A stretch of DNA of 35,598 nt, from assembly GCA_001802125.1 (NCBI GenBank), contig MGZK01000001.1:1-35598 (forward strand), given 5' to 3'. Both the position numbers and the translations under genes were made by a program. Source of the DNA: Geobacteraceae bacterium GWC2_55_20. Its GTDB lineage: Bacteria > Desulfobacterota > Desulfuromonadia > Geobacterales > Pseudopelobacteraceae. The notes beneath the pieces were generated by a model. That model did not search any database and was not told the DNA's origin. It saw only the letters and a program-made list of their open reading frames with translations. Of this stretch, positions 4,921 to 34,479 are shown piece after piece. Position 1 is the stretch's first letter; every line of letters begins with the position of its first letter.

Positions 4921-4940
4921 ACCAGGCAAACCTTTCACTG

Positions 4941-5339: not shown

Positions 5340-5392
5340 CCGTTGCAGTTTTCCTGAGTGTATTTTTTTGTTCGTTTGTCCGATCACATTCA

Positions 5393-5430
5393 CCCCATCC
5401 CCACCCCGGACCTCCCCTTGAAGGGGAGGG
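5393..5430. repeat. Right inverted repeat of the DUF559 cassette
   Basis: Contains CCCCATCCCCACCCC followed by the palindrome CCTCCCCTTGAAGGGGAGG. Read in reverse complement, it aligns along its length with the element at 4989-5025. Together they bracket the DUF559 gene. Confidence 0.7.
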
Positions 5431-5460
5431 AGTTGATGTGTATTCCTACCAGTATGGTCG

Positions 5461-6219: not shown

Positions 6220-7145
6220 TCGCGCACCCCCGCTCCGGTCAGGCTGATGAAAACATCTTCCAGCGTGCGTTCCTTGAGGGAGATGCTACGAACCGGCGCG
6301 CCGTTCAGGGCGGTGACGATCTCCGACAGGCACTCCCAGCATTCAAGCGTCACTTGAAGTCTGTTGTTTAACACCCCGATATCGCGCACACACGGCATCG
6401 ATCTAAGCAGAGTTTCATACTGATCCACGTCCCGTTCCAACTCGATCTCGTAGACGGTGGCGCCGCTCAGGCGATCCTTCAGCTCCCGGGTGCTCCCCAG
6501 AGCTACCAGGCGGCCGTGATCCATGATCGCGATCCGGTCGCAGAGCTGTTCGGCCTCCTCCAGATAATGTGTGGTCAGGAAGATCGTCATGCTTCCTGCC
6601 AGCGAACGGATATAATCCCACACCGCCCGCCGCGACTGGGGGTCCAGTCCGGTGGTCGGCTCGTCCAGGAACAACAGCTGCGGCTGGTGCAGCAATGCCC
6701 TGGCCACCACCAGGCGCCGCTGCATGCCGCCGGAAAAGGTATCGGGGAAATCCTTCTGGCGCGCGGAAAGTCCCATCAGCTCCAGCAGCTCATCGATGCG
6801 CCGGTTATAGGTTTTCCTGTCCATGCCGTGCAGACGGGCATGCAGCACCAGATTTTCACGGGCTGTCAGATAGCGGTCGAGACTGTTCTCCTGGGAGACC
6901 ACCCCGATCATGCTGCGAATACGGCGCCCTTCGGTGCGAATGTCCAGGCCGTCAATGAAAACCTCGCCGGAACTCTGGCGCATCAGCGTGGTCAGGATGC
7001 GGATCAGGGTGGTCTTGCCGGCTCCGTTGGGCCCCAGCAGACCGAATATGGAACCTTGGGCCACCTCCAGATCGAATGAATTCAGCGCGGTCAGGTTGGC
7101 ATACTGTTTCGTCAGGGATTTGGTAAGAATCGCGGGAACCGGCAT
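6216..7145 (-). CDS. ABC transporter ATP-binding protein, NodI/CcmA type
   Basis: About 309 residues with a full nucleotide-binding domain: Walker A GPNGAGKTT near 38, Q-loop VVSQENSLD, signature FSGGMQRRLVVARAL, Walker B LLFLDEPTTGLDP and the H-loop TTHYLEEAE. A C-terminal extension of about 80 residues is typical of exporters that pair with ABC-2 permeases. It powers export through the permease encoded next. The ATG at 7145 starts one base after the ubiD-family stop, which places it in the same operon; an earlier in-frame start would lie inside the UbiD gene. Confidence 0.9.
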   Translation of the reverse strand: MPVPAILTKSLTKQYANLTALNSFDLEVAQGSIFGLLGPNGAGKTTLIRILTTLMRQSSGEVFIDGLDIRTEGRRIRSMIGVVSQENSLDRYLTARENLVLHARLHGMDRKTYNRRIDELLELMGLSARQKDFPDTFSGGMQRRLVVARALLHQPQLLFLDEPTTGLDPQSRRAVWDYIRSLAGSMTIFLTTHYLEEAEQLCDRIAIMDHGRLVALGSTRELKDRLSGATVYEIELERDVDQYETLLRSMPCVRDIGVLNNRLQVTLECWECLSEIVTALNGAPVRSISLKERTLEDVFISLTGAGVRE

Positions 7146-7146
7146 G

Positions 7147-9000
7147 TCAGATGATCCCGTGCAGCGGGCCGCCCTTGGCGCCCAATGCGTCCACGCGGCG
7201 CTCCACTTCAGGATCGGCTTCCAGTCCGGGGGCATGAAAAGGCTTGACCCGGGCGTCGATCACCAGCGGACCGCGGCAGCCCCAGTGACGGCCGCGACTC
7301 TCGGCCTTGATGCCATAGACGTCGCTGGCCGGGTTGGAACGGGTGAAGGTCACCCAGAGGAAGTTGTTCAGCGTGGCGGCTGTGAAAATACTGTCGTCGC
7401 AGATCACGATCAGCGGGACTCCGTCAAAAACGTCCCTCTGGCCGTAGAAGCGGCAGAATTCCTCGATAATAGGGTCGGATTCGCCCCTCTCCTGCCCGGA
7501 CGAAGGCCCCTTGATTGCCACGATTCCCGGCAGGCAGAGCGTCGCCGGGCCGAAGCCCTCCGGCAGTTCCAGGCCAGCCGGAAGCTCCATCACCAATTGT
7601 CGGCGGACCGGACCGGCGGCGGCTATCACCAGCTTCGATCCTTGGTTCAATCCCGAGCCGCTGTAATCCAGGGTATCGATGGTCGTGGAGGTCTGGAAAT
7701 GCAGGTTGCAGCGCCAGTCGGCCCGTTCCAGCACGTGCCCGAGAAAAGCCGCGATGTCGTGGGTGTGCAGCTGCGGGGCATCCTCATCGGCGGCGATCAG
7801 GAGATATTTGGCCAGCGACAGCTGCCCCTGTCCGAGGATGGCGTTGGCAACGGTCAGCAGCTCCTGGGGCTGGCGCACTGCGGCATAGGGGACATAGCGT
7901 TCCCTGGCGATCGCCAGCAGCAGCGGATGCACTCCGGCTGCGTCCACCGCGTGCACCTCCTTGACACCGCTGACCACGGTCGGTATCAGCGGACCGCTCA
8001 ACTCGTGGATGAAAGCGCCGAAACTGGTATCTTCCTGGGGCGGGCGCCCGACAGTGGTAAACGGGAAAATGGCATCGCGGCGGTGGTAAACCGCTTCTAC
8101 TTCGATATAGGGGAATTCGTGGGCCAGGCTGTAATAACCGAGGTGGTCGCCGAAGGGGCCCTCCGGCAGCGTGTTGCCGGGATGAACCACTCCGCAGATG
8201 CAAAAATCGGCTTCGGCCGAGAGCGGCGCCTGCCCCGGCATGCGGGTCATCGGTATGCGCTGGCCCGCCAGCAATCCGGCGAAGGAAAGTTCCGGCATCC
8301 CTTCCGGCAGCGGCATCACCGCCGCAACGGTCATGGACGGCGCGCCGCCGATGAAGACGTTCACGCGCAACAGGTCGCCCCGGGCGATGGCCTCGGCATG
8401 GTGCGCTCCGATACCGCGATGGATCTGGTAGTGCAGGCCGGCCTGCCTGTCAGGCTGATAGCGGTTGCCGGAGATTTGCACCCGGTACATCCCCAGGTTG
8501 GATTTGCCGAAGCCGGGTTGCGAGGGGCTCTCGGAATAGACCTGCGGCAGCGTGATGAAAGCGCCGCCATCCCTGGGCCAGGACACGACCTGGGGCAGAC
8601 CGGAAAGCGTTGTGCGGCACTCCAGCACCGGCGCGTCCGAGGTCACGCGCGGCAACAGGTTATAGGCGGCAAAAGGGGCCTTGACTGCATCCAGCGGGTG
8701 CTTCAGCAACGACAGCGGATTTATCTTCAAATCCACCAGACGGCGAATGTCTTCCAGGGTGTCGCGGAATATGAAACGGGTGCGTTCCAGCGTGCCGAAC
8801 AGGTTGCCCAGCAGCGGAAATTTGCTGCCGGTGGCATTGGTGAATAGCAGCGCCGGGCCGCCGGCCTGGTAAACCCGGCGCTGGATCACCCCCACTTCCA
8901 GGCAGGGATCACAAGGTACATCGATTCGCAGAAGCATGCCGTGCCGCTCCAGATCGGCGACACATTGCTGAAGATTGCCGTAACCCATCCTATCCACCAT
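7147..9000 (-). CDS. UbiD-family prenylated-FMN-dependent decarboxylase
   Basis: A 617-residue UbiD-family protein, longer than E. coli UbiD (about 500). The N-terminus GNLQQCVADLERHGMLLRI is the usual family opening. The catalytic block PEGPFGDHLGYY carries the E-x4-D pair that serves in the family's Glu/Arg/acid network. UbiD enzymes reversibly decarboxylate aromatic or unsaturated acids using prenylated FMN made by UbiX. In anaerobes of this type, candidate roles include quinone synthesis or aromatic acid metabolism; the sequence alone does not decide. It overlaps the end of the upstream TPR gene by 11 bp. ATG at 8988 is an equally plausible start. No ubiX is present in the window. Confidence 0.88.
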   Translation of the reverse strand: MVDRMGYGNLQQCVADLERHGMLLRIDVPCDPCLEVGVIQRRVYQAGGPALLFTNATGSKFPLLGNLFGTLERTRFIFRDTLEDIRRLVDLKINPLSLLKHPLDAVKAPFAAYNLLPRVTSDAPVLECRTTLSGLPQVVSWPRDGGAFITLPQVYSESPSQPGFGKSNLGMYRVQISGNRYQPDRQAGLHYQIHRGIGAHHAEAIARGDLLRVNVFIGGAPSMTVAAVMPLPEGMPELSFAGLLAGQRIPMTRMPGQAPLSAEADFCICGVVHPGNTLPEGPFGDHLGYYSLAHEFPYIEVEAVYHRRDAIFPFTTVGRPPQEDTSFGAFIHELSGPLIPTVVSGVKEVHAVDAAGVHPLLLAIARERYVPYAAVRQPQELLTVANAILGQGQLSLAKYLLIAADEDAPQLHTHDIAAFLGHVLERADWRCNLHFQTSTTIDTLDYSGSGLNQGSKLVIAAAGPVRRQLVMELPAGLELPEGFGPATLCLPGIVAIKGPSSGQERGESDPIIEEFCRFYGQRDVFDGVPLIVICDDSIFTAATLNNFLWVTFTRSNPASDVYGIKAESRGRHWGCRGPLVIDARVKPFHAPGLEADPEVERRVDALGAKGGPLHGII

Positions 9001-10249
9001 TCCCGCGAATTTTTTTGAGCATCATTTCCGTAAGTCGCAGCTTTTCACGCGCCGCGTTGAGTTCCGTGCGGGACGGCTCATCCTTGAAACGGTCAAGCGC
9101 CTTTTTCAGGATGGCCTCGGCCTCCGCGTAGTTGCCGGACTTGTGACGCCAGCGGGCCTGCACTATCAGGTATTGCACCGTCTCCGGATCCAGCTTGATC
9201 GCCTTCAGCAGTGAAGCCTCGGCTTCCGCCGGTCGACCGGCCTTGTCATCCTTCCTGGCTTTCTGGTAATGCACCAGCGCTATGGCGCCGCGCACATCGC
9301 GTCGGGCCGGCTCCGATTCCAGCCTTTTCTCCGTCTGCTCAAGAAACGCAATCGCCTCGTCATGTTGTCCGCTTCTCACATAAACCGACATGATCGCGGC
9401 TATTGCATCCCTGCTTTTATTGTTGATTGCCAGCACTTTCCTGAAGTGATCAAGGGCGGAGGGGTATTCTTCACGATTCATTGCCGAACGGCCAAGATGG
9501 AGATGGGACCTGAACAGGTGCTCGTTGAATGTTCTCCGCACCGCCTCATCAGCAATTGACGGATATCGCTCGGCATGCAGGCCGATAAAATCGGCAAAAC
9601 GCCCGAGACGCATATAACTGTTAGCCAGTCCCGTCAGATAGTATGCTAGCTTGGGGGAGTCCGAAGGAAAGACCTTGTCGGCATAGGACAGCGCTTTTTC
9701 GTAATTCTGTGCCGCTTCGGCGAATTTTCCGGCACGCAGCAGCGAGAGCGCTATGGAACGGGACAGTTGCGCGTCAAATTGGGCTGAAAGTTTCTGGTAA
9801 GCGGTGACGACGGCGTCATCCTGCTCCGACAGTGTCATGGTCAGGCGGGCAAGATCGAAATTGCAGTCATCCGCCGATGCTTCTATATGTTTGTCGCGCA
9901 GTTCACCGGTAAGTTTGTTGCCGGTTATGACAAATTTGAGGGAATGGCCTTCGGCGAGAGAGGCCTCTGAAAACGGGTAGCGCAACGACAGACGCTCGGG
10001 AGCTGCCCCCGCCAGCCTGCCGACCGCAATGCTGTCACCCCCCAACAGGCCGGAATAGGATCTTTCATCTTCATCGACATTGAGAACCATGTAAATCTGG
10101 TGTCTGCCCCGCATGCCTTCGCAGGCCTTACCCGAAGTAGTGACAACATCAAGGGTTCCGACGTAGAGGCGCAGATCAGCCCATACGGGAGCCGTTATCA
10201 ATAAGGCCAGCAACATCGTTACGGAGACTATCAGGGGGTATGGGCGCAC
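8990..10249 (-). CDS. Exported TPR-repeat protein of unknown function
   Basis: A 419-residue protein with a signal peptide (MRPYPLIVSVTMLLALLITA, cleavage likely after VWA near 24). A domain of about 120 residues with a few cysteines (GKACEG, DDCNF) follows, and from about residue 140 onward come tetratricopeptide-like helical repeats such as GKFAEAAQNYEKAL and EYPSALDHFRKVLAIN. TPR arrays bind other proteins, so a periplasmic or envelope scaffold is likely. It begins with GTG and leads the operon containing the UbiD-like and ABC exporter genes, but the link is positional only. I do not recognise the N-terminal domain. Confidence 0.8.
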   Translation of the reverse strand: MRPYPLIVSVTMLLALLITAPVWADLRLYVGTLDVVTTSGKACEGMRGRHQIYMVLNVDEDERSYSGLLGGDSIAVGRLAGAAPERLSLRYPFSEASLAEGHSLKFVITGNKLTGELRDKHIEASADDCNFDLARLTMTLSEQDDAVVTAYQKLSAQFDAQLSRSIALSLLRAGKFAEAAQNYEKALSYADKVFPSDSPKLAYYLTGLANSYMRLGRFADFIGLHAERYPSIADEAVRRTFNEHLFRSHLHLGRSAMNREEYPSALDHFRKVLAINNKSRDAIAAIMSVYVRSGQHDEAIAFLEQTEKRLESEPARRDVRGAIALVHYQKARKDDKAGRPAEAEASLLKAIKLDPETVQYLIVQARWRHKSGNYAEAEAILKKALDRFKDEPSRTELNAAREKLRLTEMMLKKIRGNGG

Positions 10250-10398
10250 TTGATTCTCTCGGAGTGGAATTACAGATTTTTCAGGATACCATTCCGGGCA
10301 GGCATTTACAATCAGCTTTCAAAATGGAACATCATCCTCATTAGTGATATTGTAAAGTAAATACAGAGTCGAAGTGATTACAGTCAAGGGAGTTTGAA

Positions 10399-12525
<2,127 letters not shown>

Positions 12526-16970: not shown

Positions 16971-17047
16971 GCGCCCGTAGCTCAGCTGGATAGAGTCCCT
17001 GGCTTCGAACCAGGTTGTCGGCCGTTCGAATCGGTCCGGGCGCGCCA
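16971..17047 (+). tRNA. tRNA-Arg (anticodon TCG)
   Basis: A 77-base cloverleaf with acceptor GCGCCCG/CGGGCGC, D-arm GCTCAGCTGGATAGAG, anticodon stem CCTGG/CCAGG, loop CTTCGAA (anticodon TCG) and T-loop GTTCGAATC. The CCA end is encoded. It reads CGA arginine codons. Confidence 0.97.
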
Positions 17048-21044: not shown

Positions 21045-21088
21045 CTTTCTGAATTATTACCATGCATACACCAGCCAGCGGAGGCAGC

Positions 21089-24000
21089 ATGAAGCCTGAC
21101 CAGAAAGATCAGAAATCGAGCATCAAGACCAAGGTAACCATAACCACCTTCATCACGGTTTCCCTGCTGGTCGTTGCCGTCTCCTCGACCCTGTTTTCAT
21201 ACTTCCACACCCTGCTCAAGGAAAGTATCTTCAAACAGCAATTCGTGCTGGTTTCGGAAATTGCCGGGCAACTGAACGGTCGCATAGAGTTTGCCCGCCG
21301 CCAGCTGTCACTGGAAGCCGCCGATATTGACAGCCATGCCATGGCTGACCCCGGGAAACTTAAGCATTTCCTTACTCACGCCAGCCCCGCCAGAATGATA
21401 TTCGACGCCGGTTTCCTGGTGATCGGCACGGACGGACGGGTAATTGCCGAAAGCATGGGATTTCCGGAGCTGGTCGGAAAAGATCTGCGCTTTCGTGATT
21501 ATGTCAGCGAACCTCTTCGATCCGGCAATTCGATCATATCAGCCCCATTTCGCCTGAGCGTGCCGCCCCACTCCCCGATGATAGCAATGGCCGTTCCGGT
21601 TCGCGATGGCAATAAGCGGATCATCGGACTGCTGGCCGGCTACCATTCTCTGTTAACCGGCGAATTTCTCACCGACCTTTCATCCGAGCGTGTCGGAGAA
21701 TCCGGGTACCTGTTTCTCATCAATGAACGTACCATACTGATGCACCCTGACAAAAAACGAATTCTCGAACCGATCCCCGAAGGAATAAACCGGGGTATAG
21801 ATCAGGCTTTGCGTGGGTTTGAAGGATCGCTGGATAACATGAATTCCAGCGGTCAACACATGTTGAGTTCGTTCAAGAAGGTTGGCCGGACCGGTTGGAT
21901 ACTGGGCAGCAATATTCCTTACAAGGAAGCCTTCAATCCCCTGAGGGTACTGGCGCTTACAGCCACGCTGATATCAGTCGGCGGCACCATGCTGTCACTG
22001 GTAGTCGTCTGGCTTGTAACCCGCCGGTTGACGCATCCGTTAAGCCAGCTCACGGCCCATATGGATGCTGCCGGCGCAAAAGATCAGACATGGCAACCGA
22101 TTGAACTGCGCACCGGCGACGAAATCGAACGGCTGGCCGACGCCTTTAACAACATGATGAAGGAAGTGCACGACACGAAACAGCTGCTCAAGGAAGAGAA
22201 GGATTTTTTCAGCGGCATCATCCAGCATGCTGCAGCACCGATGTTTGTCATTGACCGCAATCACAAGATTATCTTCTGGAACGGAGCGCTGGCAAAACTG
22301 ACCGGTAAAAGTTCGTTTCAAATGACCGGAACCAAACAGCAATGGACTCCATTTTATCCGTCAAAACGCCCAGTCCTGGCCGACCTGGTAATGGATCACA
22401 CCATGGAACGCGCTGATGAGCTATATTCCAGTCATTCAACCTCCCTGTTTAATGAAGGATCTCTGCGGGCCGAGGGGTGGTACGAGAACCTTGGCGGAAA
22501 ACGGCGCTACATCTTCTTTGAAGCGGCGCCGATCAAGAACAACAACAATGAAATCATTGCCGTGATCGAAACGCTTGAGGATATAACCGAAAGAAAACTG
22601 GCCCAGGAAGCGACGACCGCCCACAATCTCTTTCTGCAGGAGATCATGGACGCCATCCCCAACCCGGTCTATTACAAGGACACCAAAGGCGCCTACCTGG
22701 GGTGCAACGCGGCTTTCAAGATTTTTTTCTGTAAAACGGCCCAGGAGATCATCGGACATACTCTTCAGGACATCATGCCGGAAAGCTACGGCGATGTAAG
22801 CAGTCAAAAAGAGCAATACATTCTCGATTCCGGCAGAAGCGAGCGCTATGAGACACAACTGGTGCGGGCCGATGGAATGGTCCGGAACATACTGGTCAGC
22901 AAGGCGCCGTTTTCAAACACCGATGGCACTCTGGCCGGGGTTGTCGGCGCTTTCGTTGATATCACCGAACAGCGGAGAATGGACGACCAGATCAGGAAGA
23001 TGTCCCGCGCGATCGAACAGAGTCCCGCTACCATCGTGATAACCGACACCCAAGGTTTAATCGAATATGTAAACCCAAAATTTTCCCAGACCACCGGCTA
23101 CTCCGCGGAAGAGGCCATCGGCATGAATCCGCGCATTCTCAAGTCCGGAGAAATGCCGGAAGACTACTATACCGATCTATGGCGCGTGATCTCAGCCGGG
23201 AAGGAATGGCGCGGCGAATTCCGCAACAAACGCAAGGACGGGTCACTGTACTGGGAATTTGCATCCATTTCACCACTGTTTGACAAGAGCGGCGTAATTA
23301 CCGGCTATCTGGCGGTCAAGGAGGACATTACTGACCGGAAAGCCGATGAGGCCGAGCTGGCCAAGAGTCGCATGGAACTGGAGAAAGCCTATACCGAACT
23401 GAAGGAGGCCCAGCTGCAGATATTCCAGCAGGAGAAGATGGCTTCCATCGGCCAGCTGGCGGCCGGTGTTGCCCACGAGATCAATAATCCGATGGGGTTC
23501 ATATCCAGTAATCTCACCACTCTGACCAAGTACATCGAGCGCCTGTCTGAGTTCATAACTGCCGGTGACCGGGCGCTGGCTGAAGCCCCCGGAGCCGACC
23601 TGCTCAAGGAGACCCGCAAACGCCTCAAGATCGACTACATCATGGAAGACGCCCGCCAGTTGATCATCGAGAGCCTGGACGGCGCGGGTCGGGTACGCCG
23701 CATCGTTCAGGACCTGAAGAGCTTCTCGCGGGTTGACAATGCCGAACAGGCGTTGATCAACCTGAACGAGGCCCTGGAGACAACCATCAATATCGCTTGG
23801 AACGAAATCAAATACGTGGCATCCCTCAATCGCGATTTCGGAGATATCCCCGAAATACGCTGCTACCCGCAACAGCTGAACCAGGTTTTCCTGAATCTGC
23901 TGGTAAATGCCGCCCATGCCATGGAAGGAGAACAGGGCAGTATTACTGTCCGGACCTGGAGCGACGGAGCCGACATCAATGTCTCGGTGACCGATACCGG

Positions 24001-24235
24001 CTGCGGCATACCTGAGGAAATCCGGCAACGCATTTTCGAGCCATTCTTCACGACCAAGGAAGTTGGAAAAGGGACCGGCCTGGGACTTTCCATCAGTTAC
24101 GACATCATTCGCAAACATGGCGGTGAAATCAGCGTGGAAAGTGAACCGGGGCAAGGGACCACCTTTACGGTAAGACTGCCGGTGAGCGGACCGTCGAAAA
24201 AAGACGATGCGGTGAATCACGGTAAATCGTTATAA
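21089..24235 (+). CDS. Cache-HAMP-triple-PAS sensor histidine kinase
   Basis: A 1048-residue kinase. A membrane helix (about 17-42) and a second one (about 286-311) flank a periplasmic dCache-like domain of about 240 residues ([18 protein letters not shown] and [14 protein letters not shown] are typical). Then come HAMP and three PAS domains (starting near [33 protein letters not shown] and [16 protein letters not shown]), a coiled coil, the phospho-acceptor region [17 protein letters not shown], and the ATPase domain ([23 protein letters not shown]). It senses a small extracellular ligand by family analogy. GGAGG sits four bases before the ATG at 21089, preferred over the unsupported ATG at 21062. 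No receiver follows in the protein; its partner is not adjacent. Confidence 0.92.
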
Positions 24236-24329
24236 AACAATCCATGGTGATCAGTATCGGCATGAGTTTTACGCAAACCATGCTATATTAAAAACATCGT
24301 TGTAAAATCAGACAAGGGGTTACAGCCAG

Positions 24330-25238
24330 ATGAATCATATATCCGCTGAAAAGCTGTTGGACAGCATGTTTGACGGCGTATATTTCGTCGATCTCGACAG
24401 GCGTATTACCTACTGGAACAACGCGGCCGAACGCATTACCGGCTACAACAGGTCGGAAGTTATCGGATCGCGCTGTTCGGACAACCTGCTGCGACATATA
24501 GATGCGAATGGCCATCAACTCTGTCAGCATGGCTGCCCGCTGGCGGCCACGATGCAGGACGGCAAGACACGCGAGTCCAGCGTGTTTCTGCACCACGCCT
24601 TCGGTCATCGCGTTCCGGTTTCGGTCAGGACATCACCGGTGCGCGATGATGCCGGCCAAATCCTGGGTGCGGTGGAGATATTCAGCGACAATTCCAGCTC
24701 GTTGCAGATATTGCACGAATATGAGCGGTTGAAACAGGACGCCTACCTGGATCAGCTCACCACGGTGGGCAACCGCAGATACGGAGAGATGACGCTCTCC
24801 ACGCGAATCTACGAGCTGCGGACACATGACATTCCCTTTGGCGTTTTGTTCATCGATATCGATCATTTCAAAAGATTCAACGATCAATACAGCCATAAGA
24901 CCGGCGACGATGTGCTGGTAATGGTTTCCAAGTCCATATCGTTTTCATTGAGAAAGATGGATTCGGTCGCAAGGTGGGGGGGCGAGGAGTTTATTGTCAT
25001 ACTTCCCGGAGCAAGTCAGGTAATAGTCAAATCCGTATCTGAACGAATACGCATGCTGATTGAAAACAGCTTTATCATGGCAGGAAAAGACAAACTGAAT
25101 GTCACAGTTTCCATCGGCGCGACCATGTCGCGACCGGATGATACGATTGAAACGATAGTCGGTCGGGCAGACAGGCACATGTACCTCAGCAAGAGCAGGG
25201 GGCGTAACCGGGTTACGGAAGACGAGGATCATGAGTGA
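24330..25238 (+). CDS. PAS-GGDEF diguanylate cyclase
   Basis: A 302-residue soluble protein. The N-terminal PAS domain (about 1-125) carries C49, C65 and C69 within SRCSDNLLRHIDANG and LCQHGCPLA. The GGDEF domain (about 138-295) has GGEEF at 217-221 and an RxxD product-inhibition site (RKMD) exactly five residues before it. It should make c-di-GMP from two GTP and be feedback-inhibited. Asp is kept in NDQYSHKTGDD at the base-selectivity position, so it does not look like the Hypr-type cGAMP synthases known in Geobacter. An extended -10-like TGCTATATT lies near 24281-24289. Confidence 0.93.
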   Translation: MNHISAEKLLDSMFDGVYFVDLDRRITYWNNAAERITGYNRSEVIGSRCSDNLLRHIDANGHQLCQHGCPLAATMQDGKTRESSVFLHHAFGHRVPVSVRTSPVRDDAGQILGAVEIFSDNSSSLQILHEYERLKQDAYLDQLTTVGNRRYGEMTLSTRIYELRTHDIPFGVLFIDIDHFKRFNDQYSHKTGDDVLVMVSKSISFSLRKMDSVARWGGEEFIVILPGASQVIVKSVSERIRMLIENSFIMAGKDKLNVTVSIGATMSRPDDTIETIVGRADRHMYLSKSRGRNRVTEDEDHE

Positions 25239-25278
25239 CCTGAACAGGGACATTCCATCGCCGGAGGAGGTTGCTCTT

Positions 25279-25404
25279 ATGACGAAGACATCCGTTAAGA
25301 CGCAAACATCGCCTGAAAGGAATCAGCATGTATATGATTATTTCCGGAGCAACAGTGTGCCTGGTTACGTTTTTTTACACATGCGGAGCTGCCTTGGCAC
25401 TTGA
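25279..25404 (+). CDS. Possible 41-aa leader ORF overlapping the TonB-receptor start
   Basis: An ATG with a strong GGAGGAGG site opens a 41-codon frame (MTKTSVKTQTSPERNQHVYD at its start) that runs across, and out of frame with, the receptor start at 25328. It could be a leader peptide coupling or restricting receptor translation. Alternatively it could be the true N-terminus of the receptor separated by a frameshift, or chance. Confidence 0.25.
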   Translation: MTKTSVKTQTSPERNQHVYDYFRSNSVPGYVFLHMRSCLGT

Positions 25405-27364
25405 TCGAAACATCTACGATCTGAGCCTGGATAAACTGTCAGACCTGGTGATTACCGATACCAAGATTGGCCAGTCCCAGGAGACTGTGACACAAAAAGT
25501 TGAGCTATATTATCCGGAAGAATTCGATCAGCAGACCACCTACAACGGGAATATCGCCGAATTGCTCAAATACAGCTCCGGGCAGTTTGTAAACCCGCTT
25601 TCCCGCAATGACGCCAACTGGGGCTCATTCGGCGGCCTGGGGCCGAAATATAACGGCTATCTTCTGGACGGCCTGCCGATTGATTCCTTTGCCGACGCCA
25701 TGAGCCTTGATCCTTGGGCCTTCGGTCAGGTTGAGATTCACAAGGGGCCGGCCTCGGTCATGTATTCCAACTACCTGACCATGGACTTTGCCGGCAATGA
25801 AGCTCCGCTGGCCGGTATCACAAATTTCATTCTCAAGGACAGGATTGATTCTCCCGCCACCCGCGTCATGGTGGGAGGAGGAAGTTACAACACCCTTACC
25901 GGTCGCCTGTTCCACCAGGACAGAAAAGAAAACCTCAACTATTTCATCGGCGCAAGCTATGAGCAGTCCGACTACACCAACTACGGCACACCCAACTCCT
26001 GGCTGAATATCATCAATAACCCCGAATACCAAAAAACCAGGCTGTATGCAAAACTCACCTATCTTTTTGACCGCGATGACCACAAGCTGTCACTCTTTGC
26101 TCACCATACCCAGCATAGCGGAGATGCCGGCCGGCCCAATCGCGATTTCACCCACAAATATGACACCATCAACGCCTCCTACTCCAACCAGATCACCCAG
26201 ACGGTTAACTTCCAACTTAAGAGCGGCTATCGCAACTATGACCGCCGCTGGGCGGAAGACAATTTTCCGGCGGATCTGGGACTGCGCGAGCATGACGGAG
26301 TGGAACAGAGCATCTTTCCCTCCGACCTGACCATCAACTTCAGCCATGCCGGCAGCAGTATGTTGACGTTCGGAGCCGATTCCCAGGTCGCAACATACAA
26401 GACTTTTGCAGAGATTGACGGCATCAAAAAAACCGGCACTGATGTAAGTGCCTACTCTACCGGCCTTTTCCTGCAGGAGAAATATGTACTGGACAAATGG
26501 GTATTCAGAGCCGGAGGCCGTTTCAACTACACCAGCCACTCCTACGATCTATTTAATGGAATTTCACCGGCAAAACGGGAGAATTCATGGGACTCGTTCC
26601 TTTGGAGCACCGGACTCCGCTACAACCTAACACCCGGAATTGCACTTTACGGCAACGCCGCCTCAAGTTTCGTGGCTCCCTCAGCCAAGCAGCTCGGTGG
26701 AACCCTGAGCGCCGCCAGCGCCGGAGTGCCCGGCCAGAACGGACAGTTGCCAAGTCTTGACCTCAAGCCGGAAAAAGGTATCGGCTCCGATATCGGGCTG
26801 GACCTGCGCCCCATGGACACGATGATTATCGGCATCAGGGGATTCTTTAACCAGGTCGATGACGCAATCGTGGAAAATGTGATCAGCGCTACCCCGTCCC
26901 AGAGCAGGTCGATGAATGCCGGAAATGCACTCTCCTACGGTTTTGAACTGAACATTGATCACAAGTTTGCCGAAGCGGTACGCTGGTTTGCAAACCTGAC
27001 CTACACGGCCAGCCGGGTGGAAAACCCGCTGGACAGTGACCAGAACGGCGCCGACATACCTTTTGTTCCCGACTACATTGCCAACGCGGGTATAACCGCC
27101 CGGCTGCCGCTGGATATTTCAGTATCCCCCTATCTGCATATGGTGGGTGACTATTACGACAGCACATCCTTGAGCAATCGCAGAAAATTCGGGTCATATC
27201 AGCTGTTGAACATCAGGGCGCAAAAAAAGGTCTTCAAAAACGCAGACTACACCCTGAATGCCACAGTTGATCTGAACAACCTGTTCGATAATCGTTATGA
27301 AATGCCCTGGCAGTTCAGAGACCCCGGCTTCAATGCCTTCGGCAGCCTGGAGTTGACGTTTTGA
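25328..27364 (+). CDS. TonB-dependent outer-membrane receptor
   Basis: A 678-residue protein. A signal peptide (about 1-24, ending ALA) and a TonB-box-like segment (SDLVITDTKIGQ) precede the plug domain (about 50-170, with LDGLPIDSF and VEIHKGPASVMYSN). A long beta-barrel follows, with alternating aromatic residues, ending in LELTF; the terminal Phe is the usual assembly signal. It may take up or sense an iron chelate, cobalamin or another substrate; the sequence does not say. AAGGA precedes the ATG. YfiR is encoded 11 bases downstream, which is an informative context (see findings). No tonB-exbB-exbD genes are in the window. Confidence 0.9.
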   Translation: MYMIISGATVCLVTFFYTCGAALALDRNIYDLSLDKLSDLVITDTKIGQSQETVTQKVELYYPEEFDQQTTYNGNIAELLKYSSGQFVNPLSRNDANWGSFGGLGPKYNGYLLDGLPIDSFADAMSLDPWAFGQVEIHKGPASVMYSNYLTMDFAGNEAPLAGITNFILKDRIDSPATRVMVGGGSYNTLTGRLFHQDRKENLNYFIGASYEQSDYTNYGTPNSWLNIINNPEYQKTRLYAKLTYLFDRDDHKLSLFAHHTQHSGDAGRPNRDFTHKYDTINASYSNQITQTVNFQLKSGYRNYDRRWAEDNFPADLGLREHDGVEQSIFPSDLTINFSHAGSSMLTFGADSQVATYKTFAEIDGIKKTGTDVSAYSTGLFLQEKYVLDKWVFRAGGRFNYTSHSYDLFNGISPAKRENSWDSFLWSTGLRYNLTPGIALYGNAASSFVAPSAKQLGGTLSAASAGVPGQNGQLPSLDLKPEKGIGSDIGLDLRPMDTMIIGIRGFFNQVDDAIVENVISATPSQSRSMNAGNALSYGFELNIDHKFAEAVRWFANLTYTASRVENPLDSDQNGADIPFVPDYIANAGITARLPLDISVSPYLHMVGDYYDSTSLSNRRKFGSYQLLNIRAQKKVFKNADYTLNATVDLNNLFDNRYEMPWQFRDPGFNAFGSLELTF

Positions 27365-27375
27365 AGGGGATTTCC

Positions 27376-27924
27376 ATGGATACATCCGGCAAAAGGTTGA
27401 TATTAATCCGGACGTTTTTTGCGCTGATTGTTATCTGCTTTTCATCAGCAATCCATCAGGTACGGCCGGTCCGGGCCGGCGGCCTGGAAACCAAGGTAAA
27501 GGTCGCCTATATCTACAATTTCACCAAGTTTATCGAGTGGCCAGATGACGACAGCGACCCGATCAGAATCTGCGTAATCGGAAACGATCCGATTCGCACA
27601 ATGCTGGGTGAGCTTTCAAACCGGGAAGTCAAGGGGCGGCCGCTCAGGATCATTCGGGTGAAAGACCTGAACTCGATGCCTTCCTGCCATCTGCTGTTCA
27701 TCAGCCGCTCCGAAGAGTCCCAGGTCCCCAATATTCTGCAGCGTCTCCAGGGCACAAGGGTTCTGACGGTCAGCGACATCCCCCAGTTTGCAAAACGGGG
27801 AGGCATGATCAGTTTTACTACTGAAAAGGAGCGGGTCAAGATCGAGATAAACCAGCGGACTGTTCGCCAGGCCGGCCTGAAGGTAAGCGCCAAGCTGCTC
27901 GAAATAGCGAGGGTTGTTCAATGA
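27376..27924 (+). CDS. YfiR-family (DUF4154) periplasmic regulator
   Basis: A 182-residue protein. A signal peptide (about 1-34, ending VRA) is followed by [16 protein letters not shown], the family opening, then [25 protein letters not shown] and the late [18 protein letters not shown] block. In Pseudomonas, YfiR binds the periplasmic part of the diguanylate cyclase YfiN and holds it inactive. C66 and C104 are 38 residues apart, close to the spacing of one of the known YfiR disulfides. The ATG at 27376 has AAGGGGA upstream. The stop overlaps the next kinase gene (ATGA), supporting a functional pair. Confidence 0.9.
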
Positions 27925-29432
27925 CAGGACAACTATTCAATCTTACTGCTATAAAAAAACTGCCGATCAAAAAGAAGCTGGTGGTTATCTCGATGGCAGC
28001 CACGATCATCGGTCTGCTGGTGGCAGGTACCGCCTTCACTGTTTTTGACCGCTACCGGGTCAAACAGAACATGGTGCAGGATCTTTCGGCGCTTTCGATG
28101 CTTATTGCCGAGCGGACCAACGCCGCACTGTTGTTCGATGACCCGGATCTTGCACGGGAAAACCTTGCATCACTGCGGGTCAAACCTTCGGTCACCGGCG
28201 CCCGCATCTACACGGAAAACGGTTCCGTTTTTGCAACCTATAAGTCGGCTGGCAAAGAGACGGAGACTTTTCCCACGCCTGTGTATGAAAAGCTGCATCG
28301 ATTTGAACCCCGGCGCCTGGTTGTCTTCGAACCGATGATTTTTGAAGGAAAACGGATCGGCTCCGTATGTATGCAAGCCAGCCTCACGGAACTTGACACG
28401 GTCTGGAAGAACTATCTTGTATCCACCGTTCTGATCATGCTGGGTTCATGCCTGGCAGCATTCATACTGTCATCGCGACTGCAGAAGATCATATCGGCAC
28501 CGATTACAAATCTTACAAATACTGCCCAGCAGATCAGTGAGCAGAAAGATTATTCGGTACGGGCGGACCAGGAGAGCGATGACGATATCGGGGTACTGGT
28601 CAAGGCCTTCAACGTGATGCTGGAAACCATAGAATTCCAGAATGCAGAGCTTATCGATAACAACCGGCGCCTGGAACAACGCGTTGCCGAAAGAACCCTG
28701 GAACTTCAGGAAGCCAAGGAGCGTGCTGAAACAGCCGACCAGCTCAAATCGGCATTTCTGGCCACCATGTCCCATGAGCTGCGCACTCCGCTCAACTCGA
28801 TCATCGGTTTTACCGGCATTCTGCTGCAGGGCCTGGGCGGGGCGATCAACGAAGAGCAGGCCAAACAGCTCGGCATGGTCCGTAAGAGCGCCAATCACCT
28901 GCTTTCCCTGATCAGCGACATTCTGGATATCTCCAAGATCGAGGCCGGACAGCTGAAAGTGTCAATGGAGCCGTTCAACCTGCAGGAGTCGATCGCCAAG
29001 GTCGTGCAGAGCGTGCGCCCGCTGGCCGAGCAAAAAGGTCTGGACTTAACCGTCGAGGTGGCGTTCGACGTGGGAACGATTACTAACGATGTTCGCCGGA
29101 CGGAACAGGTCCTTCTCAACCTGCTCAGCAATGCGGTGAAGTTCACGGATCAAGGCAGCATCTCGGTTCATTGCGCACGTGAAGCGGAGTATTATGTAAC
29201 CACGGTAACCGACACCGGCATCGGCATCAAGGAAAACGATCTTGCCCGACTGTTCAAACCGTTCCAACAGGTTGACACCGGCCTGAGCCGTAAATACGAA
29301 GGCACCGGCCTGGGACTCTCGATCTGCAAAAAGCTGGTGGAGTTGATGGGTGGCAGCATACGAGCTGAGAGCAGCCCTGGAAAAGGCAGCACATTCGGTT
29401 TTTCACTTCCGCTTGAAAGGAATACGGCATGA
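27921..29432 (+). CDS. CHASE8-like/HAMP histidine kinase, probable YfiR target
   Basis: A 503-residue kinase. TM1 (about 20-42) and TM2 (about 165-185) flank a periplasmic domain of about 120 residues with [28 protein letters not shown] and [13 protein letters not shown]. That pattern matches the sensor region of YfiN-type cyclases (CHASE8). Then come HAMP, a coiled coil, the phosphoacceptor H285 in [17 protein letters not shown], and an ATPase domain ([33 protein letters not shown]). So a YfiN-like sensor is joined to a kinase, not to a GGDEF domain. It overlaps yfiR-like and the following receiver gene by 4 bp each. Confidence 0.92.
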
Positions 29433-29806
29433 AAAAGAAGATCCTGTACATCGAGGATAACGAGCAGAACCTCTATCTGGTTACCTTCATCCTGGAAAAG
29501 CACGGCTATCAGGTTTTTGCCGCGATGGATGGCCAGCAGGGAATCGACAGCGCTGCCACGATAAATCCTGACCTGATCCTGCTTGATATCCAGCTGCCGC
29601 TCATGGATGGTTATGCCGTTGCCAGGCAGCTCCGCACCAACCCTGGTCTTGCCGGCATTCCGATCGTGGCGGTAACCTCCTACGCCATGGCGGGAGACAG
29701 GGAAAAGGCTATTGCGGCGGGATGCAACGGCTATATCGAAAAACCGATCAACCCGGACACCTTCATGCAGCAGGTCGAGCAGCACCTGCCCTGCCGGGAA
29801 GAGTAA
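29429..29806 (+). CDS. Single-domain response regulator (DivK-like)
   Basis: A 125-residue lone receiver with YIEDNEQN at the acidic pocket, phosphoacceptor D53 in [11 protein letters not shown], a conserved Thr in VAVTSYAM and Lys in YIEKPI. It has no output domain, so it should act by protein-protein contact or as a phosphate shuttle. The start overlaps the kinase stop (ATGA), making that kinase the likely donor. Confidence 0.92.
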
Positions 29807-29817
29807 GGACAAAAATC

Positions 29818-31506
29818 ATGCAACGTATACTGATAGTCGACGATATTGCCGAAAATCTGTATTACCTTGAAGTGCTCCTCAAGGGAAACGGGTTTGAGGT
29901 GCAATCTTCCATCAATGGCGCCCAAGCACTTCAGCTGGCCCGGGAGATCCCTCCCGACCTGATACTTTCAGACATCCTGATGCCGGTAATGGACGGCTAT
30001 GCCCTCTGCCGGGAGTGGCGGAGCGACGAACGCCTGAAACAGATACCTTTCATATTCTATACCGCCACCTTTACCGAGAAAAAAGACGAGGAGCTGGCCC
30101 TGAGCCTGGGGGCTGACCGCTTTGTCATCAAGCCCCAGGAGCCGGATGCCCTGATGGACATCATCCGTTCTGTTCTTGCCGTTTCCCGCCCCGAAGACGC
30201 GGGACTCTGCGCCGATCCCCCCGGTAATGAGGGAGAGCTGCTAAAGGATTATAACGAGGCTCTGTTCCGCAAGCTGGAAAAGAAGATGGCCGATCTGGAA
30301 CGCACCAACATGGAACTTGAACTTAACATCGCCGAGCAGAAACGTCTGGAGGAGCAGCTTCGGCAGGTGCAGAAAATGGAGGCGATCGGACGCTTTTCGG
30401 CCGGTATCGCTCATGATTTCAACAACCTGCTGACCGTGATCATCGGCTTCGGCACCGTTATGCAGATGAAAATGTCCGTAGATGATCCGCAACGGGACAA
30501 GATCGACAATATACTTGCCGCTGCCGACAGGGCCGCGAATCTGACCCGCTGCCTCTTGACCTTCAGCAGAAAGCAGGAGATGCATCTGCGAGCGATAAAT
30601 CTCAACGACTGCATCAGGCATGTGGATATATTTCTCCGCAGAATCATCGGAGAAGACATCAAGCTGTCAATCTCCCTCAAACAAGAGAATCTCCAGGTAT
30701 TTGCCGATTGCGGACACATTGAGCAGGTACTCATGAACCTGGCTACAAATGCACGGGATGCCATGCCGGATGGCGGTATTCTCACAATCGATACCGACCT
30801 GATCGAAATTGACCAGGCATTTATTCAGATGCACGGTTATGGCACGCCGGGGCGCCATGCAATCATCACGGTAGCCGACAACGGCATCGGCATGGATGAA
30901 GCCACCCGGCAGCAGATCTTCGAACCGTTTTTTACCACCAAGGAATCCGGCCGCGGCACGGGATTGGGACTCTCGATCATCTACGGGATAGTAAGTCAGC
31001 ATAAAGGTCACATCAGCGTCTACAGCGAACCGCGACAAGGCACTACCTTCAGAATATTGCTGCCGCTGATGGAAGAGAAGGTTTCACCTAACGCGTCAAA
31101 AGTTTGCCATGAGCCGCTGCCGGGAGGAAACGAAACCATTCTGGTCGTGGATGACGAAGCCGCCATCAGGCAATATCTCGAGCTGTTTCTTACCAGCCTG
31201 GGTTATTCGGTACTGTTTGCCAGAGATGGGCAGGAGGCAATTGACATCTTCTCCGATCATAAACATGATGTGAGCCTGGTGCTGATGGATATCATCATGC
31301 CCAATAAAAATGGCAGGGAAGCTGCTCGTGAAATCAACAATATCAACCCGGACACAAGAATTGTTTATACAAGCGGCTACCCGTCCGATCTTATCAGTGA
31401 CAGAAACCTGCTGGAAGATGGAGCGGAACTTTTGATGAAACCGTTGATGCCCACCGAACTTGCCTTGCGATTGAGGGCGGCCTTGAATGGTAAAAGCAGT
31501 AATTGA
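29818..31506 (+). CDS. REC-histidine kinase-REC hybrid
   Basis: A 563-residue cytoplasmic protein. Receiver 1 has [10 protein letters not shown] and D52 in [12 protein letters not shown] coiled coil leads to the kinase core with H199 in [18 protein letters not shown] box [10 protein letters not shown] and G boxes DNGIGMD and GTGLGLSII. Receiver 2 (about 440-560) has [10 protein letters not shown] and [14 protein letters not shown]. An N-terminal receiver can gate the kinase, and the C-terminal one can pass phosphate on. The ATG at 29818 follows AAGGAC, 12 bases after the lone receiver gene. All phosphotransfer residues are intact, so it looks like a relay node within this cluster. Confidence 0.93.
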
Positions 31507-31529
31507 TGTGTGCCGGAAAGGATCATCTA

Positions 31530-32330
31530 ATGGAACGCACAAATGAACCCGTTAGAATTTTATGTGTTGATGACGAGCGCAATGTGCTAAGGGCTCTGGA
31601 GCGGATATTTCTTGATGACGACTATGAGATCGTGACCGCAGCTTCCGGGCAGGAAGGGCTGGATATTCTGGAAGAAACCGGTCCTTTTCAGGTGATAATT
31701 TCGGATTACCGCATGCCGGTGATGAACGGTGTCGAGTTTCTCAAGGCCGTCTACGACCGCTGGCCGGAAACCGTCCGCATCGTGCTGTCCGGCTATGCCG
31801 ATGCCGGAGCAATCGTAGCGGCAATCAATGAAGGGCATATATACAAATTCATCCCCAAGCCCTGGAATGACGAAGAGTTACGGGTGACTATCCAGAACTG
31901 CCTGGAACGCTATTTCCTTTTGCAGCGAAACCGGGAACTGCTGTCCGAACTGGAAACAGCAAATCATGCCCTGGAAGAAAAGGTGCTGCAGCGCACCGAA
32001 CAGCTGGAACTGCGCAACCGGGTGCTGGAATTCTCCCAGGGGATTCTCGGCACCCTGCCGGTAGGAGTTGTCGGCATAGATGATGCGGGCATGATTGCGC
32101 TTTGCAATACCAAGGGGATGTCGATACTCGGTGGAATCTGTAAGACAATCCTGGGTGGAGATGTGAAACACAATTGCTCATCGGAATTTTCGGCTCTGGT
32201 CAGCCGCATCCGCGAAGAGAAAAAACTGGACACGACTATTCAACTGAACGATAAATCTTGGCGGGTGATGGGATCTCTGGTTACCATAAATGACTGTGAA
32301 GCCGCCGTGGCGGTTTTTCTGGAGGTTTGA
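31530..32330 (+). CDS. Response regulator, receiver plus PAS-like domain
   Basis: A 266-residue protein. The receiver (about 8-125) has LCVDDERN, D59 in VIISDYRMPVMNG, the SGYAD stretch and the IYKFIPKPWNDEEL segment typical of RpfG-type regulators. A coiled coil (about 130-175) is followed by a PAS-like domain (ILGTLPVGVVGIDDAGMIAL and later). It has no catalytic or DNA-binding output, so it may work as a scaffold or sensor-linked relay. The ATG at 31530 follows AAAGGA and lies 23 bases after the hybrid kinase. Confidence 0.88.
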   Translation: MERTNEPVRILCVDDERNVLRALERIFLDDDYEIVTAASGQEGLDILEETGPFQVIISDYRMPVMNGVEFLKAVYDRWPETVRIVLSGYADAGAIVAAINEGHIYKFIPKPWNDEELRVTIQNCLERYFLLQRNRELLSELETANHALEEKVLQRTEQLELRNRVLEFSQGILGTLPVGVVGIDDAGMIALCNTKGMSILGGICKTILGGDVKHNCSSEFSALVSRIREEKKLDTTIQLNDKSWRVMGSLVTINDCEAAVAVFLEV

Positions 32331-32332
32331 AC

Positions 32333-32401
32333 GTGCGAACAGTACTTTTTGTAGACGACGAGCAGCCTATCCGCAACGCACTGGAGCGCATGTATAAATA
32401 A
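32333..32401 (+). pseudogene. Receiver-domain fragment (22 codons)
   Basis: A GTG start with GGAGG seven bases upstream encodes the first beta strand and acidic pocket of a receiver (TVLFVDDEQPIRNALERMYK) and then stops at TAA. It resembles the start of the next gene product (VLFVDDEENILRALKR). The rest of the receiver is absent; the bases to 32479 hold only a 28-codon frame with no recognised product. It is most likely the stub of a deleted response regulator gene, though the intact initiation site could still be used. Confidence 0.7.
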
Positions 32402-32479
32402 TGCATGAGAAGAATGCGACTCATTTTTATCCGCGGCTGATGGAACTTTTCCTGCCGATATCCGAGGAGGTTCGGAGCA

Positions 32480-33784
32480 ATGACTGATGAACAACCTGTA
32501 ACCGTGCTGTTTGTTGATGACGAGGAAAACATCCTGCGGGCATTGAAACGCTTGATGATGGATGAAGATTTCATTGTCGAAACCGCCTCCTCCGGTGAAG
32601 CCGGACTGGAAAAACTGAGGGGACTCGATAATGTCGGCCTGATTGTTTCCGATCAGCGCATGCCCGGCATGAATGGAGCGGAATTTCTCGGCCGTTCGCA
32701 GGAATTCGCTCCCTTTGCCCAGAGGATCCTGTTGACAGGCTACTCGGATATCAATGCCACGATAGATGCAATCAATAAGGGGGGCGCGGGACGCTACATC
32801 TCGAAACCATGGGATGACCAGGAACTGGTTAACACAATCCGCACTGCTCTTGAACAGTATGCCCAAGGGTCCGAAAAAAGGCGACTGAACGATATCATCA
32901 GCAACCAGAAGAAAGAACTGGAGGAGTGGAACGACAACCTGAAGAAACGGCTTCTGCAGAGTACCGCCACCATCAGGGAACAGAGCCAGGCCATAAAGAG
33001 CCTGGATGAACGGTCGCCATTGACCATTCTCAGCCGGACATTTGATAATTTTTTCGAGATAATGGGCGACCGCAACGCGGTCCACGCCCGGACTGTAAGC
33101 ACACTGGTGACCGACGTCGCCCGCAAGATGGGCCTGGATTCCGAAACGGTGGCGATCTTCCGTTTGGCGGCTCTGTTGCATGACGCGGGAAAATTCGGCA
33201 GCCTGGTTTCGAACCTGAACAAGCATCTTGAGGAAATGTCCGAGAGCGAGGCGATCGAATACAGACAGCATCCGCTGCGTGGTGAGGAGATGTTCAGTCA
33301 AGTTGAAGAGTTGGCCGGCATCGGGCCGCTGATTCGCCACCATCACGAGTCGTACGACGGCAACGGTTTTCCCGGCCGCTTGCAGGGCGATGCAATCCCG
33401 CTGGGAGCGCGCCTGATAACGATTGCCGACCATATCGAAAAAGCGGCCCGCTCGGTTGAACATAACCGCGCCGATTACGCGCTGATGAGCGCCCGTTTCC
33501 GCGGCGGGACTCTGCTCGATCCGCAGCTGGTAACCCGTTTTCAGGGAATCACCAAGGTAGTGTATTTTGAAGGCAAGAAATCAGGATCGCATTTCGAGGT
33601 TGAGGTCGGTCCGCTTGAACTTGCGCCGGGCATGACCATTGCCCGCGATGTGGAAAGCGGATCAGGCGTGCTGCTGATGCAACGTGGCTGCGTGCTGGAC
33701 CAGGCAAGCGTTATTCTGATCCGGAGCCATTACCGCAAAAACCCGCCCCCACAGGGCATTTTCGTACAGGTGGTCGAGGACTGA
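32480..33784 (+). CDS. Response regulator with HD-GYP-like phosphodiesterase domain
   Basis: A 434-residue protein. The receiver (about 7-125) has LFVDDEEN and D58 in LIVSDQRMPGMNG. A coiled coil (about 130-175) leads to an HD-GYP-like domain with H202, the HD pair H234-D235 in LLHDAGKFG, H264 in RQHPLRGEEM, H287-H289 in RHHHESYDGNGFPG and D317 in TIADHIEKA. The GYP motif reads GFP here. A C-terminal domain of about 90 residues (LAPGMTIARDVESGSGVLLM) follows. HD-GYP proteins hydrolyse c-di-GMP. The metal ligands look complete, but the altered motif makes activity uncertain. Confidence 0.88.
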   Translation: MTDEQPVTVLFVDDEENILRALKRLMMDEDFIVETASSGEAGLEKLRGLDNVGLIVSDQRMPGMNGAEFLGRSQEFAPFAQRILLTGYSDINATIDAINKGGAGRYISKPWDDQELVNTIRTALEQYAQGSEKRRLNDIISNQKKELEEWNDNLKKRLLQSTATIREQSQAIKSLDERSPLTILSRTFDNFFEIMGDRNAVHARTVSTLVTDVARKMGLDSETVAIFRLAALLHDAGKFGSLVSNLNKHLEEMSESEAIEYRQHPLRGEEMFSQVEELAGIGPLIRHHHESYDGNGFPGRLQGDAIPLGARLITIADHIEKAARSVEHNRADYALMSARFRGGTLLDPQLVTRFQGITKVVYFEGKKSGSHFEVEVGPLELAPGMTIARDVESGSGVLLMQRGCVLDQASVILIRSHYRKNPPPQGIFVQVVED

Positions 33785-34402: not shown

Positions 34403-34479
34403 TGGTCGGTGCGACTGGATTCGAACCAGCGACCACTAGACCCCCAGTCTAGTGCGCTACCAGGCTGCGCTACGCACCG
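34403..34479 (-). tRNA. tRNA-Pro (anticodon GGG)
   Basis: A 77-base cloverleaf: acceptor CGGTGCG/CGCACCG, D-arm GCGCAGCCTGGTAGCGC, anticodon stem CTAGA/TCTAG with loop CTGGGGG (anticodon GGG), T-loop GTTCGAATC and encoded CCA. It reads CCC and CCU proline codons. Confidence 0.97.

What the first reader, a model, noticed from the sequence alone, without database searches (positions are those of the whole stretch)
25328..29432. TonB receptor + YfiR + YfiN-like sensor fused to a histidine kinase
Three consecutive, tightly spaced genes cover outer membrane, periplasm and inner membrane. YfiR is known in Pseudomonas as the periplasmic inhibitor of YfiN, whose periplasmic domain resembles the one here ([19 protein letters not shown]). 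Here that sensor is joined to HAMP and a kinase core, not to GGDEF. I propose a YfiR-gated histidine kinase with a TonB-dependent receptor as the possible signal entry or detection point. The adjacency, overlaps and domains are seen; the signalling model is inference.
Basis: partly seen in the sequence, partly recalled or inferred. Interest (0 to 1): 0.75.

Follow-up and report, generated by a model that had tools for sequence, protein, structure and literature searches.

The report
Tagged outer-membrane receptor with gated kinase
Three overlapping genes encode an outer-membrane receptor, a periplasmic inhibitor-like protein and an inner-membrane sensor kinase; the set is widespread and partly described already, but here the receptor is of another kind than usual and still carries a short tag typical of receptors found beside this inhibitor.

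Summary
A TonB-dependent receptor (TBDR), a YfiR-like protein and a CHASE8-HAMP-histidine kinase lie at 25328-29432; successive frames overlap by 4 bases, and a receiver gene overlaps the kinase end likewise. The genome holds one DUF4154, one CHASE8 and six TBDR plug genes; one of each sits here. As a kind it is not new: NCBIfam has models for all three partners (NF053590/1/2), and Malone 2012 reported YfiR/YfiN cores with kinase outputs. The YfiR-like protein and kinase pass those cut-offs; the window's receptor does not match the receptor model. It belongs to a separate TBDR family, seen in seven YfiR-CHASE8 pairs of Geobacter and kin. On a quick tree of 96 typed pairs receptor type needs 18 changes, so receptors are exchanged. 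What I did not find described: YfiR-linked receptors of different families share a 13-residue N-terminal tag (consensus ELSLEDLMNIEVT; here DLSLDKLSDLVIT). It occurs in 30 of 32 linked receptors (both misses start at a contig edge) and 2 of 100 unlinked ones in 39 genomes; 7 of 7 versus 2 of 62 in a later set; but in 4 of 20 unlinked in a third. Best reading: the tagged receptor controls YfiR, which gates the kinase. Docking is inferred, not shown.

The parts
25328..27364 (+). TonB-dependent receptor, 678 aa, plug and barrel, no STN signalling domain; type TC, a family apart from NF053590
25418..25456 (+). N-terminal tag DLSLDKLSDLVIT (receptor residues 31-43), after the likely signal peptide (by eye) and before the plug
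   Evidence: 12.2 bits, threshold 3.84 (1% of shuffled segments)
27361..27924 (+). YfiR-like periplasmic protein (DUF4154), TTG start or ATG at 27376
   Evidence: NF053591 142.5 bits over cut-off 125; fold; start
27921..29432 (+). sensor histidine kinase, CHASE8-HAMP-HisKA-HATPase, with likely membrane helices on both sides of CHASE8 (by eye)
   Evidence: NF053592 239 bits over cut-off 194; model
28062..28373 (+). CHASE8 periplasmic domain (kinase residues 48-151)
28122..28136 (+). AALLF stretch (residues 68-72), equivalent of the AAVVF stretch of YfiN
   Evidence: Phe 114 of 114; role of AAVVF from PMC3375315 passages
29429..29806 (+). single receiver domain, likely cognate response regulator
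29722..31506 (+). receiver-kinase-receiver hybrid (true start probably 29818); downstream, membership uncertain
31503..32330 (+). receiver protein, downstream, membership uncertain
32480..33784 (+). receiver-HD domain protein (HD-GYP-like by its motifs, recalled), downstream, membership uncertain
   Evidence: HD_5 86.2 bits
24330..25238 (+). PAS-GGDEF protein just upstream, membership uncertain
   Evidence: GGDEF 140 bits

Best explanation
The three genes encode one envelope-spanning signalling unit. YfiR sits on the CHASE8 domain of the kinase and sets its activity, as P. aeruginosa YfiR does for YfiN. The outer-membrane receptor is the input: when its ligand (unknown) binds or TonB pulls, its N-terminal tag becomes able, or unable, to hold YfiR, much as the N-terminal segment of YfiB holds YfiR in the known system. 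YfiR release changes kinase activity, and phosphate passes to the overlapping receiver protein. Shown by computation: gene order, families, conserved contact residues, recurrence, receptor exchange, and the tag-YfiR association. Inferred: that YfiR inhibits this kinase, that the tag binds YfiR, the direction of the switch, and the phosphate target.
For: Adjacency: 33 of 34 YfiR genes in loci of the same order have a TBDR next to them and 27 of 34 also a CHASE8 gene; among 83 YfiR genes in 80 loci of named genomes 68 have an adjacent TBDR, 73 an adjacent CHASE8 gene, 59 both. CHASE8 Phe72 is invariant in 114 of 114, and YfiR pocket positions 150, 163, 175, 179, 180 stay mostly hydrophobic. Published structures put the N-terminal segment of an outer-membrane protein (YfiB) into that pocket (passages of PMC4887326 and PMC4655355). 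Tag: 30 of 32 linked versus 2 of 100 unlinked TBDRs, 0 of 43 TBDRs in 19 genomes without a YfiR match, 7 of 7 versus 2 of 62 in a later set. The window's receptor is of another family (15.8 bits to the main type's profile) yet bears the tag. OmpS of Alcanivorax, 40.3% similar to TOL_0244, is described as the sensor that triggers alkane chemotaxis (passages).
Against: No experiment was done and no complex was modelled. Pocket positions 165, 168 and 177 vary. Tag columns covary with CHASE8 at least as much as with YfiR, so the partner of the tag is not identified. Few independent origins: on a quick tree of 124 TBDRs the linked label needs 5 changes, and the independent-pairs test (3 pairs on well-supported branches; typically 2 the same way, 0 opposite, 1 without difference) cannot reach significance. 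In the third set 4 of 20 unlinked receptors score over the threshold, and one strongly tagged receptor in the second set (L369) has no DUF4154 match on its contig. Two linked Methylomonas outer-membrane proteins (L150, L171) lack the tag, and their pairs are the sister group of the window's clade on the YfiR-CHASE8 tree.
Confidence: 0.55

Rival explanations
1. Ligand relay: the receptor only imports a small molecule, YfiR binds it in the periplasm as a one-lobe binding protein and so changes its grip on the kinase. The receptor and YfiR do not touch.
Against: It gives no reason for a shared N-terminal tag on unlike receptor families. The reported small-molecule affinity is in the ten-millimolar range.
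Confidence: 0.25
2. Co-regulation only: the kinase controls uptake genes, the receptor is a target of the system and not its input, and the tag is a special TonB box for a particular TonB paralogue.
For: The tag lies about 19-30 residues ahead of the plug start (27 of the 30 measured; plug start approximate on the minus strand), where TonB boxes lie. Unlinked tagged receptors exist.
Against: No DNA-binding domain in the receiver beside the kinase. The tag is missing from 43 of 43 receptors of genomes without a YfiR match. I did not test which TonB proteins these genomes have.
Confidence: 0.15
3. Neighbours by chance or by general clustering of signalling genes, with no shared function.
For: The region is rich in signalling genes.
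Against: 32 of 35 DUF4154 matches near a Plug against 0.25 expected in 39 genomes; recurrence over several phyla.
Confidence: 0.02

Closest known systems
NCBIfam set NF053590 (TonB_dep_TOL0244), NF053591 (YfiR_like_TOL0243), NF053592 (HK_near_YfiR_like)
   Same: Same three-gene kind; the window's YfiR-like protein and kinase pass the two curated cut-offs.
   Different: NF053590 is not among the 15 families that the window's receptor matches at E up to 0.01; it is another TBDR family.
YfiBNR of Pseudomonas aeruginosa
   Same: YfiR fold, CHASE8-HAMP membrane protein with the AAVVF-like stretch, an outer-membrane partner.
   Different: Kinase in place of GGDEF; TBDR in place of the OmpA-like lipoprotein YfiB; of the two cysteine pairs named in PMC4655355 (passages) Cys71-Cys110 has counterparts in the window and Cys145-Cys152 has not (alignment).
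YfiR-YfiN[PAS] cores with kinase output (Malone 2012, PMC3375315)
   Same: The paper reports sensor kinases in place of GGDEF in distant yfiNR operons and names Geobacter sp. M21 among the compared species.
   Different: TonB does not occur in that paper's main text; almost all the distant operons are said to lack yfiB.
OmpS/TOL_0244 alkane receptors
   Same: TOL_0244 names the receptor model NF053590; its relative OmpS is reported to sense alkanes and trigger chemotaxis (passages).
   Different: YfiR is not mentioned in two of these papers (0 occurrences; not searched for in the third); whether ompS lies beside yfiR was not tested.
FecA-type transducing TBDRs (cell-surface signalling; recalled)
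   Same: An outer-membrane receptor that signals inward through its periplasmic N-terminus.
   Different: No STN domain; here a short tag, YfiR and a kinase in place of anti-sigma and sigma factors.

Membership tests
NCBIfam TOL_0244/0243/HK set | YfiR-like protein over NF053591 cut-off | tested here: met
   142.5 bits, cut-off 125
NCBIfam TOL_0244/0243/HK set | kinase N-terminal part over NF053592 cut-off | tested here: met
   239 bits, cut-off 194
NCBIfam TOL_0244/0243/HK set | receptor over NF053590 cut-off (645) | tested here: not met
   no match at E up to 0.01; L078 and L127 receptors pass with 667.8 and 800
YfiBNR | YfiR equivalog model NF053586 cut-off 85 | tested here: not met
   50.9 bits
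YfiBNR | YfiR fold | tested here: met
YfiBNR | CHASE8 periplasmic domain with AAVVF-like stretch | tested here: met
   CHASE8 70.3 bits; AALLF, Phe invariant in 114 of 114
YfiBNR | GGDEF output on the membrane protein | tested here: not met
   HisKA and HATPase_c instead
YfiBNR | YfiB lipoprotein with OmpA domain in the operon | tested here: not met
   no OmpA domain in the nine genes 21062-33784 scanned; rest of genome not searched
Transducing TBDR (FecA type) | STN domain at the receptor N-terminus | tested here: not met
   only Plug and barrel at E up to 0.01
YfiR-gated kinase | YfiR binds the periplasmic domain and changes kinase activity | not testable with these tools
   no complex prediction or bench test available

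The most novel reading that the evidence does not exclude
The N-terminal tag is a portable coupling peptide that plugs TonB-dependent receptors of several families into one periplasmic switch, YfiR, and through it into kinases or diguanylate cyclases: a third way, besides sigma/anti-sigma cell-surface signalling and YfiB, of carrying a signal from the outer membrane inward, with freely exchanged inputs and outputs. The window is a case in which the whole receptor was exchanged and the tag kept or regained.
Probability: 0.4. Interest if true: 0.8.

Novelty: new variant of a known kind. Interest (0 to 1): 0.6.

Why it matters
If the tag couples receptors to YfiR, one can pick from sequence alone which of the many TBDRs are likely sensors and not mere importers, and test it with a deletion of a dozen residues. 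It would also give OmpS-type alkane receptors, reported as sensors, a candidate route into the cell.

Tried and rejected
L200 looked like a natural fusion of receptor, YfiR and kinase. Its frame runs through a stretch of N between YfiR and CHASE8, and the receptor-YfiR joint lacks a normal receptor end: rejected as a likely assembly artefact. In the tally it counts as having neither partner.

Covariation of tag and YfiR columns: above within-type shuffles, but CHASE8 did at least as well; inconclusive. Phylogenetic independence test: too few origins. Foldseek with the whole kinase listed kinase-core matches in its first 50 rows and says nothing on CHASE8. phmmer of the CHASE8 part against the PDB gave only weak matches, best E 0.22.

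Exceptions kept in the counts: G001 (L092) has a YfiR-like gene with neither TBDR nor CHASE8 beside it; G001's one TBDR has no tag. L091 has receptor and YfiR but no CHASE8 gene in the 16 kb held. L095 and L102, two of the 28 kinase-anchored loci, show no YfiR by my profile.

Independence of the tag tests: the motif was first seen by eye in sequences that included the 39 genomes; the matrix was then trained on main-type receptors from loci L093-L200 (48 used, 47 instances). Of the seven linked receptors in the second set two (L331, L332) are genes already seen as L104 and L110. Among the eight linked ones of the third set several were training or earlier test genes, so there only the unlinked counts are informative. 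In the second set 69 plug matches were looked at: 29 of the 30 loci that the tool returned (L312, the window's own genome, dropped) and 40 that I picked from the listing (6 linked, 34 unlinked). In the third set 30 loci were returned for 158 matches; 2 tandem receptors, both tagged, were left out of the table. Of 134 plug matches in the 39 genomes 132 were fetched; G002:C70 and G030:C7 were not. A first run of the second set read some loci on the wrong strand and was redone.

Not found in print: the receptor-YfiR link and the tag were sought in an open-access library only, by words, not by sequence. The one paper (PMC9611778) holds both 'YfiR' and 'TonB'; I saw it in the listing alone.
Full report
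What is there. Three frames on the + strand overlap by 4 bases each: TBDR 25328-27364, YfiR-like 27361-27924, CHASE8-HAMP-kinase 27921-29432 (the YfiR-like gene may instead start at the ATG at 27376). A receiver gene, 29429-29806, overlaps the kinase end by 4 bases. Domains were confirmed with Pfam. In this genome DUF4154 matches once, CHASE8 once and the TBDR plug six times, so their meeting here is not chance.

Recurrence. I fetched neighbourhoods around YfiR relatives in the same order (window plus 32 loci) and around kinase relatives in the phylum (28 loci), and took 80 loci of named genomes from one scan that kept the best 80 of 273. Genes were labelled with profiles that I built from the window's proteins. 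Tally (adjacent means same strand and under 400 bases): same order, 34 YfiR genes, 33 with an adjacent TBDR, 27 also with an adjacent CHASE8 gene, whose output is a kinase in 20 and GGDEF in 7. Named genomes, 83 YfiR genes: 68 with adjacent TBDR, 6 more with one a gene away, 73 with adjacent CHASE8, 59 with both; at least six of the 80 records repeat loci of the other sets. The kinase-anchored set is biased by its choice and gave 26 YfiR genes in 28 loci, 21 of the 26 with adjacent TBDR. In 39 related genomes, 32 of 35 DUF4154 matches have a plug within 3 kb, 0.25 expected; these are 32 of 134 plug matches. The kinase model NF053592 passes its cut-off in 26 of 395 phylum genomes.

What is known. 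NCBIfam holds three consecutive models for this neighbourhood: NF053590 receptor, NF053591 YfiR-like, NF053592 kinase. Malone and colleagues (PMC3375315, section 12 read whole, passages) describe YfiR-YfiN[PAS] as a modular core, with kinases among the outputs.

What differs here. The window's YfiR-like protein and kinase pass their cut-offs; its receptor does not match NF053590 at E up to 0.01. A profile of the main linked type gives it 15.8 bits against 1533 for its own type. In a tree of 65 linked and 16 unlinked TBDRs it forms with its relatives a clade on a branch of 1.95, apart from the two large linked clades (quick tree, long branches flagged). On the YfiR-CHASE8 tree the seven pairs with this receptor type, all from Geobacter and kin, form one clade (support 99). 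Over the 96 typed pairs receptor type needs 18 changes, output (111 pairs) 6. This is a quick tree with weak inner branches; well-supported branches force at least 6 changes for each of the two large types.

The tag. Reading receptor N-termini side by side showed a shared stretch after the signal peptide: window DLSLDKLSDLVIT, others NLSLEALMDIDVT, ELSLEQLMQMKVE, DMPLESLLQLKVS. A 13-column matrix was trained on main-type receptors outside the 39 genomes, with a threshold at 1% of shuffled segments. In the 39 genomes 30 of 32 YfiR-linked receptors score over it; the two that do not begin at a contig edge. Of 100 unlinked ones 2 do; both genes lie at a contig end, on the side where YfiR would be. 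Receptors of the 19 genomes without a YfiR match: 0 of 43. Linked receptors of other types outside the 39 genomes: second type 24 of 25 (the miss is cut off; one hit is barely over the threshold), ambiguous 4 of 4, window type 1 of 1, Methylomonas type 0 of 2. Second set, 59 phylum genomes: 7 of 7 linked, 2 of 62 unlinked. Third set, 12 named genomes: 8 of 8 linked, 4 of 20 unlinked. So the tag is close to universal among the linked receptors seen and uncommon, not absent, elsewhere. The two highest unlinked scores in the third set (L377, L384) are in Agitococcus, whose genome has a YfiR on another contig.

Mechanism. In P. aeruginosa YfiR represses YfiN and is held by YfiB at the outer membrane. 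An N-terminal segment of YfiB puts a hydrophobic side chain into a conserved YfiR pocket that overlaps the proposed YfiN site (passages of PMC4887326, and PMC4655355). Carried over by the ranges, the pocket positions 150, 163, 175, 179 and 180 stay mostly hydrophobic in the 114 pairs, while 165, 168 and 177 vary (Q165, V168, A177 in the window); CHASE8 Phe72 is invariant. I propose that the tag plays the part of the YfiB segment. This is inference by analogy; covariation did not single out YfiR as the tag's partner. The sign of the kinase response, the ligand and the phosphate target are unknown. TOL_0244 rose sevenfold on n-C28 alkane against Tween 80, and its relative OmpS is called the alkane sensor that triggers chemotaxis (passages of PMC6304351, PMC5174103, PMC9788540). 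The window's receptor is too distant to carry that ligand over.

Verdict. Observation confirmed; interpretation plausible but largely known. The window is a variant with another receptor; the receptor tag is the part worth testing.

Noticed in passing
L150 3456-6389 and L171 4960-7893: In Methylomonas the gene beside YfiR is a 977-aa outer-membrane protein; L150's has a carboxypeptidase-regulatory-like domain and OMP_b-brl_4 barrel. Neither has the tag: another kind of outer-membrane partner.
   Followed up: partly
L086 5626-13342 and L191 5817-14109: Two receptor-YfiR pairs in tandem ahead of one CHASE8 kinase; Nitrospira L199 has three receptors in a row before one YfiR.
   Followed up: no
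L369 (G043 contig C133): A receptor with a strong tag (21 bits) and no DUF4154 match on its contig, in a genome that has a YfiR elsewhere.
   Followed up: no
L092 7503-8024: A YfiR-like gene without TBDR or CHASE8 near; a nearby gene (9819-10889) is DUF4382.
   Followed up: no
window 21062-33784: Dense signalling cluster: Cache-PAS kinase, PAS-GGDEF, the triad, several receivers and a receiver-HD protein, which suggests a c-di-GMP link.
   Followed up: partly
window 1292-9000, - strand: Heavy-metal P-type ATPase (E1-E2, HMA), a 4Fe-4S protein (perhaps FixG-like, that domain below its cut-off) and a UbiD-type decarboxylase.
   Followed up: no
window 16971-17047 and 34403-34479: tRNA-Arg (tcg) and tRNA-Pro (ggg) genes.
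   Followed up: no
G023 contigs C57 and C56: A tagged receptor runs off the end of C57, and C56 begins inside a receptor followed by YfiR; they may be one locus split by assembly.
   Followed up: no
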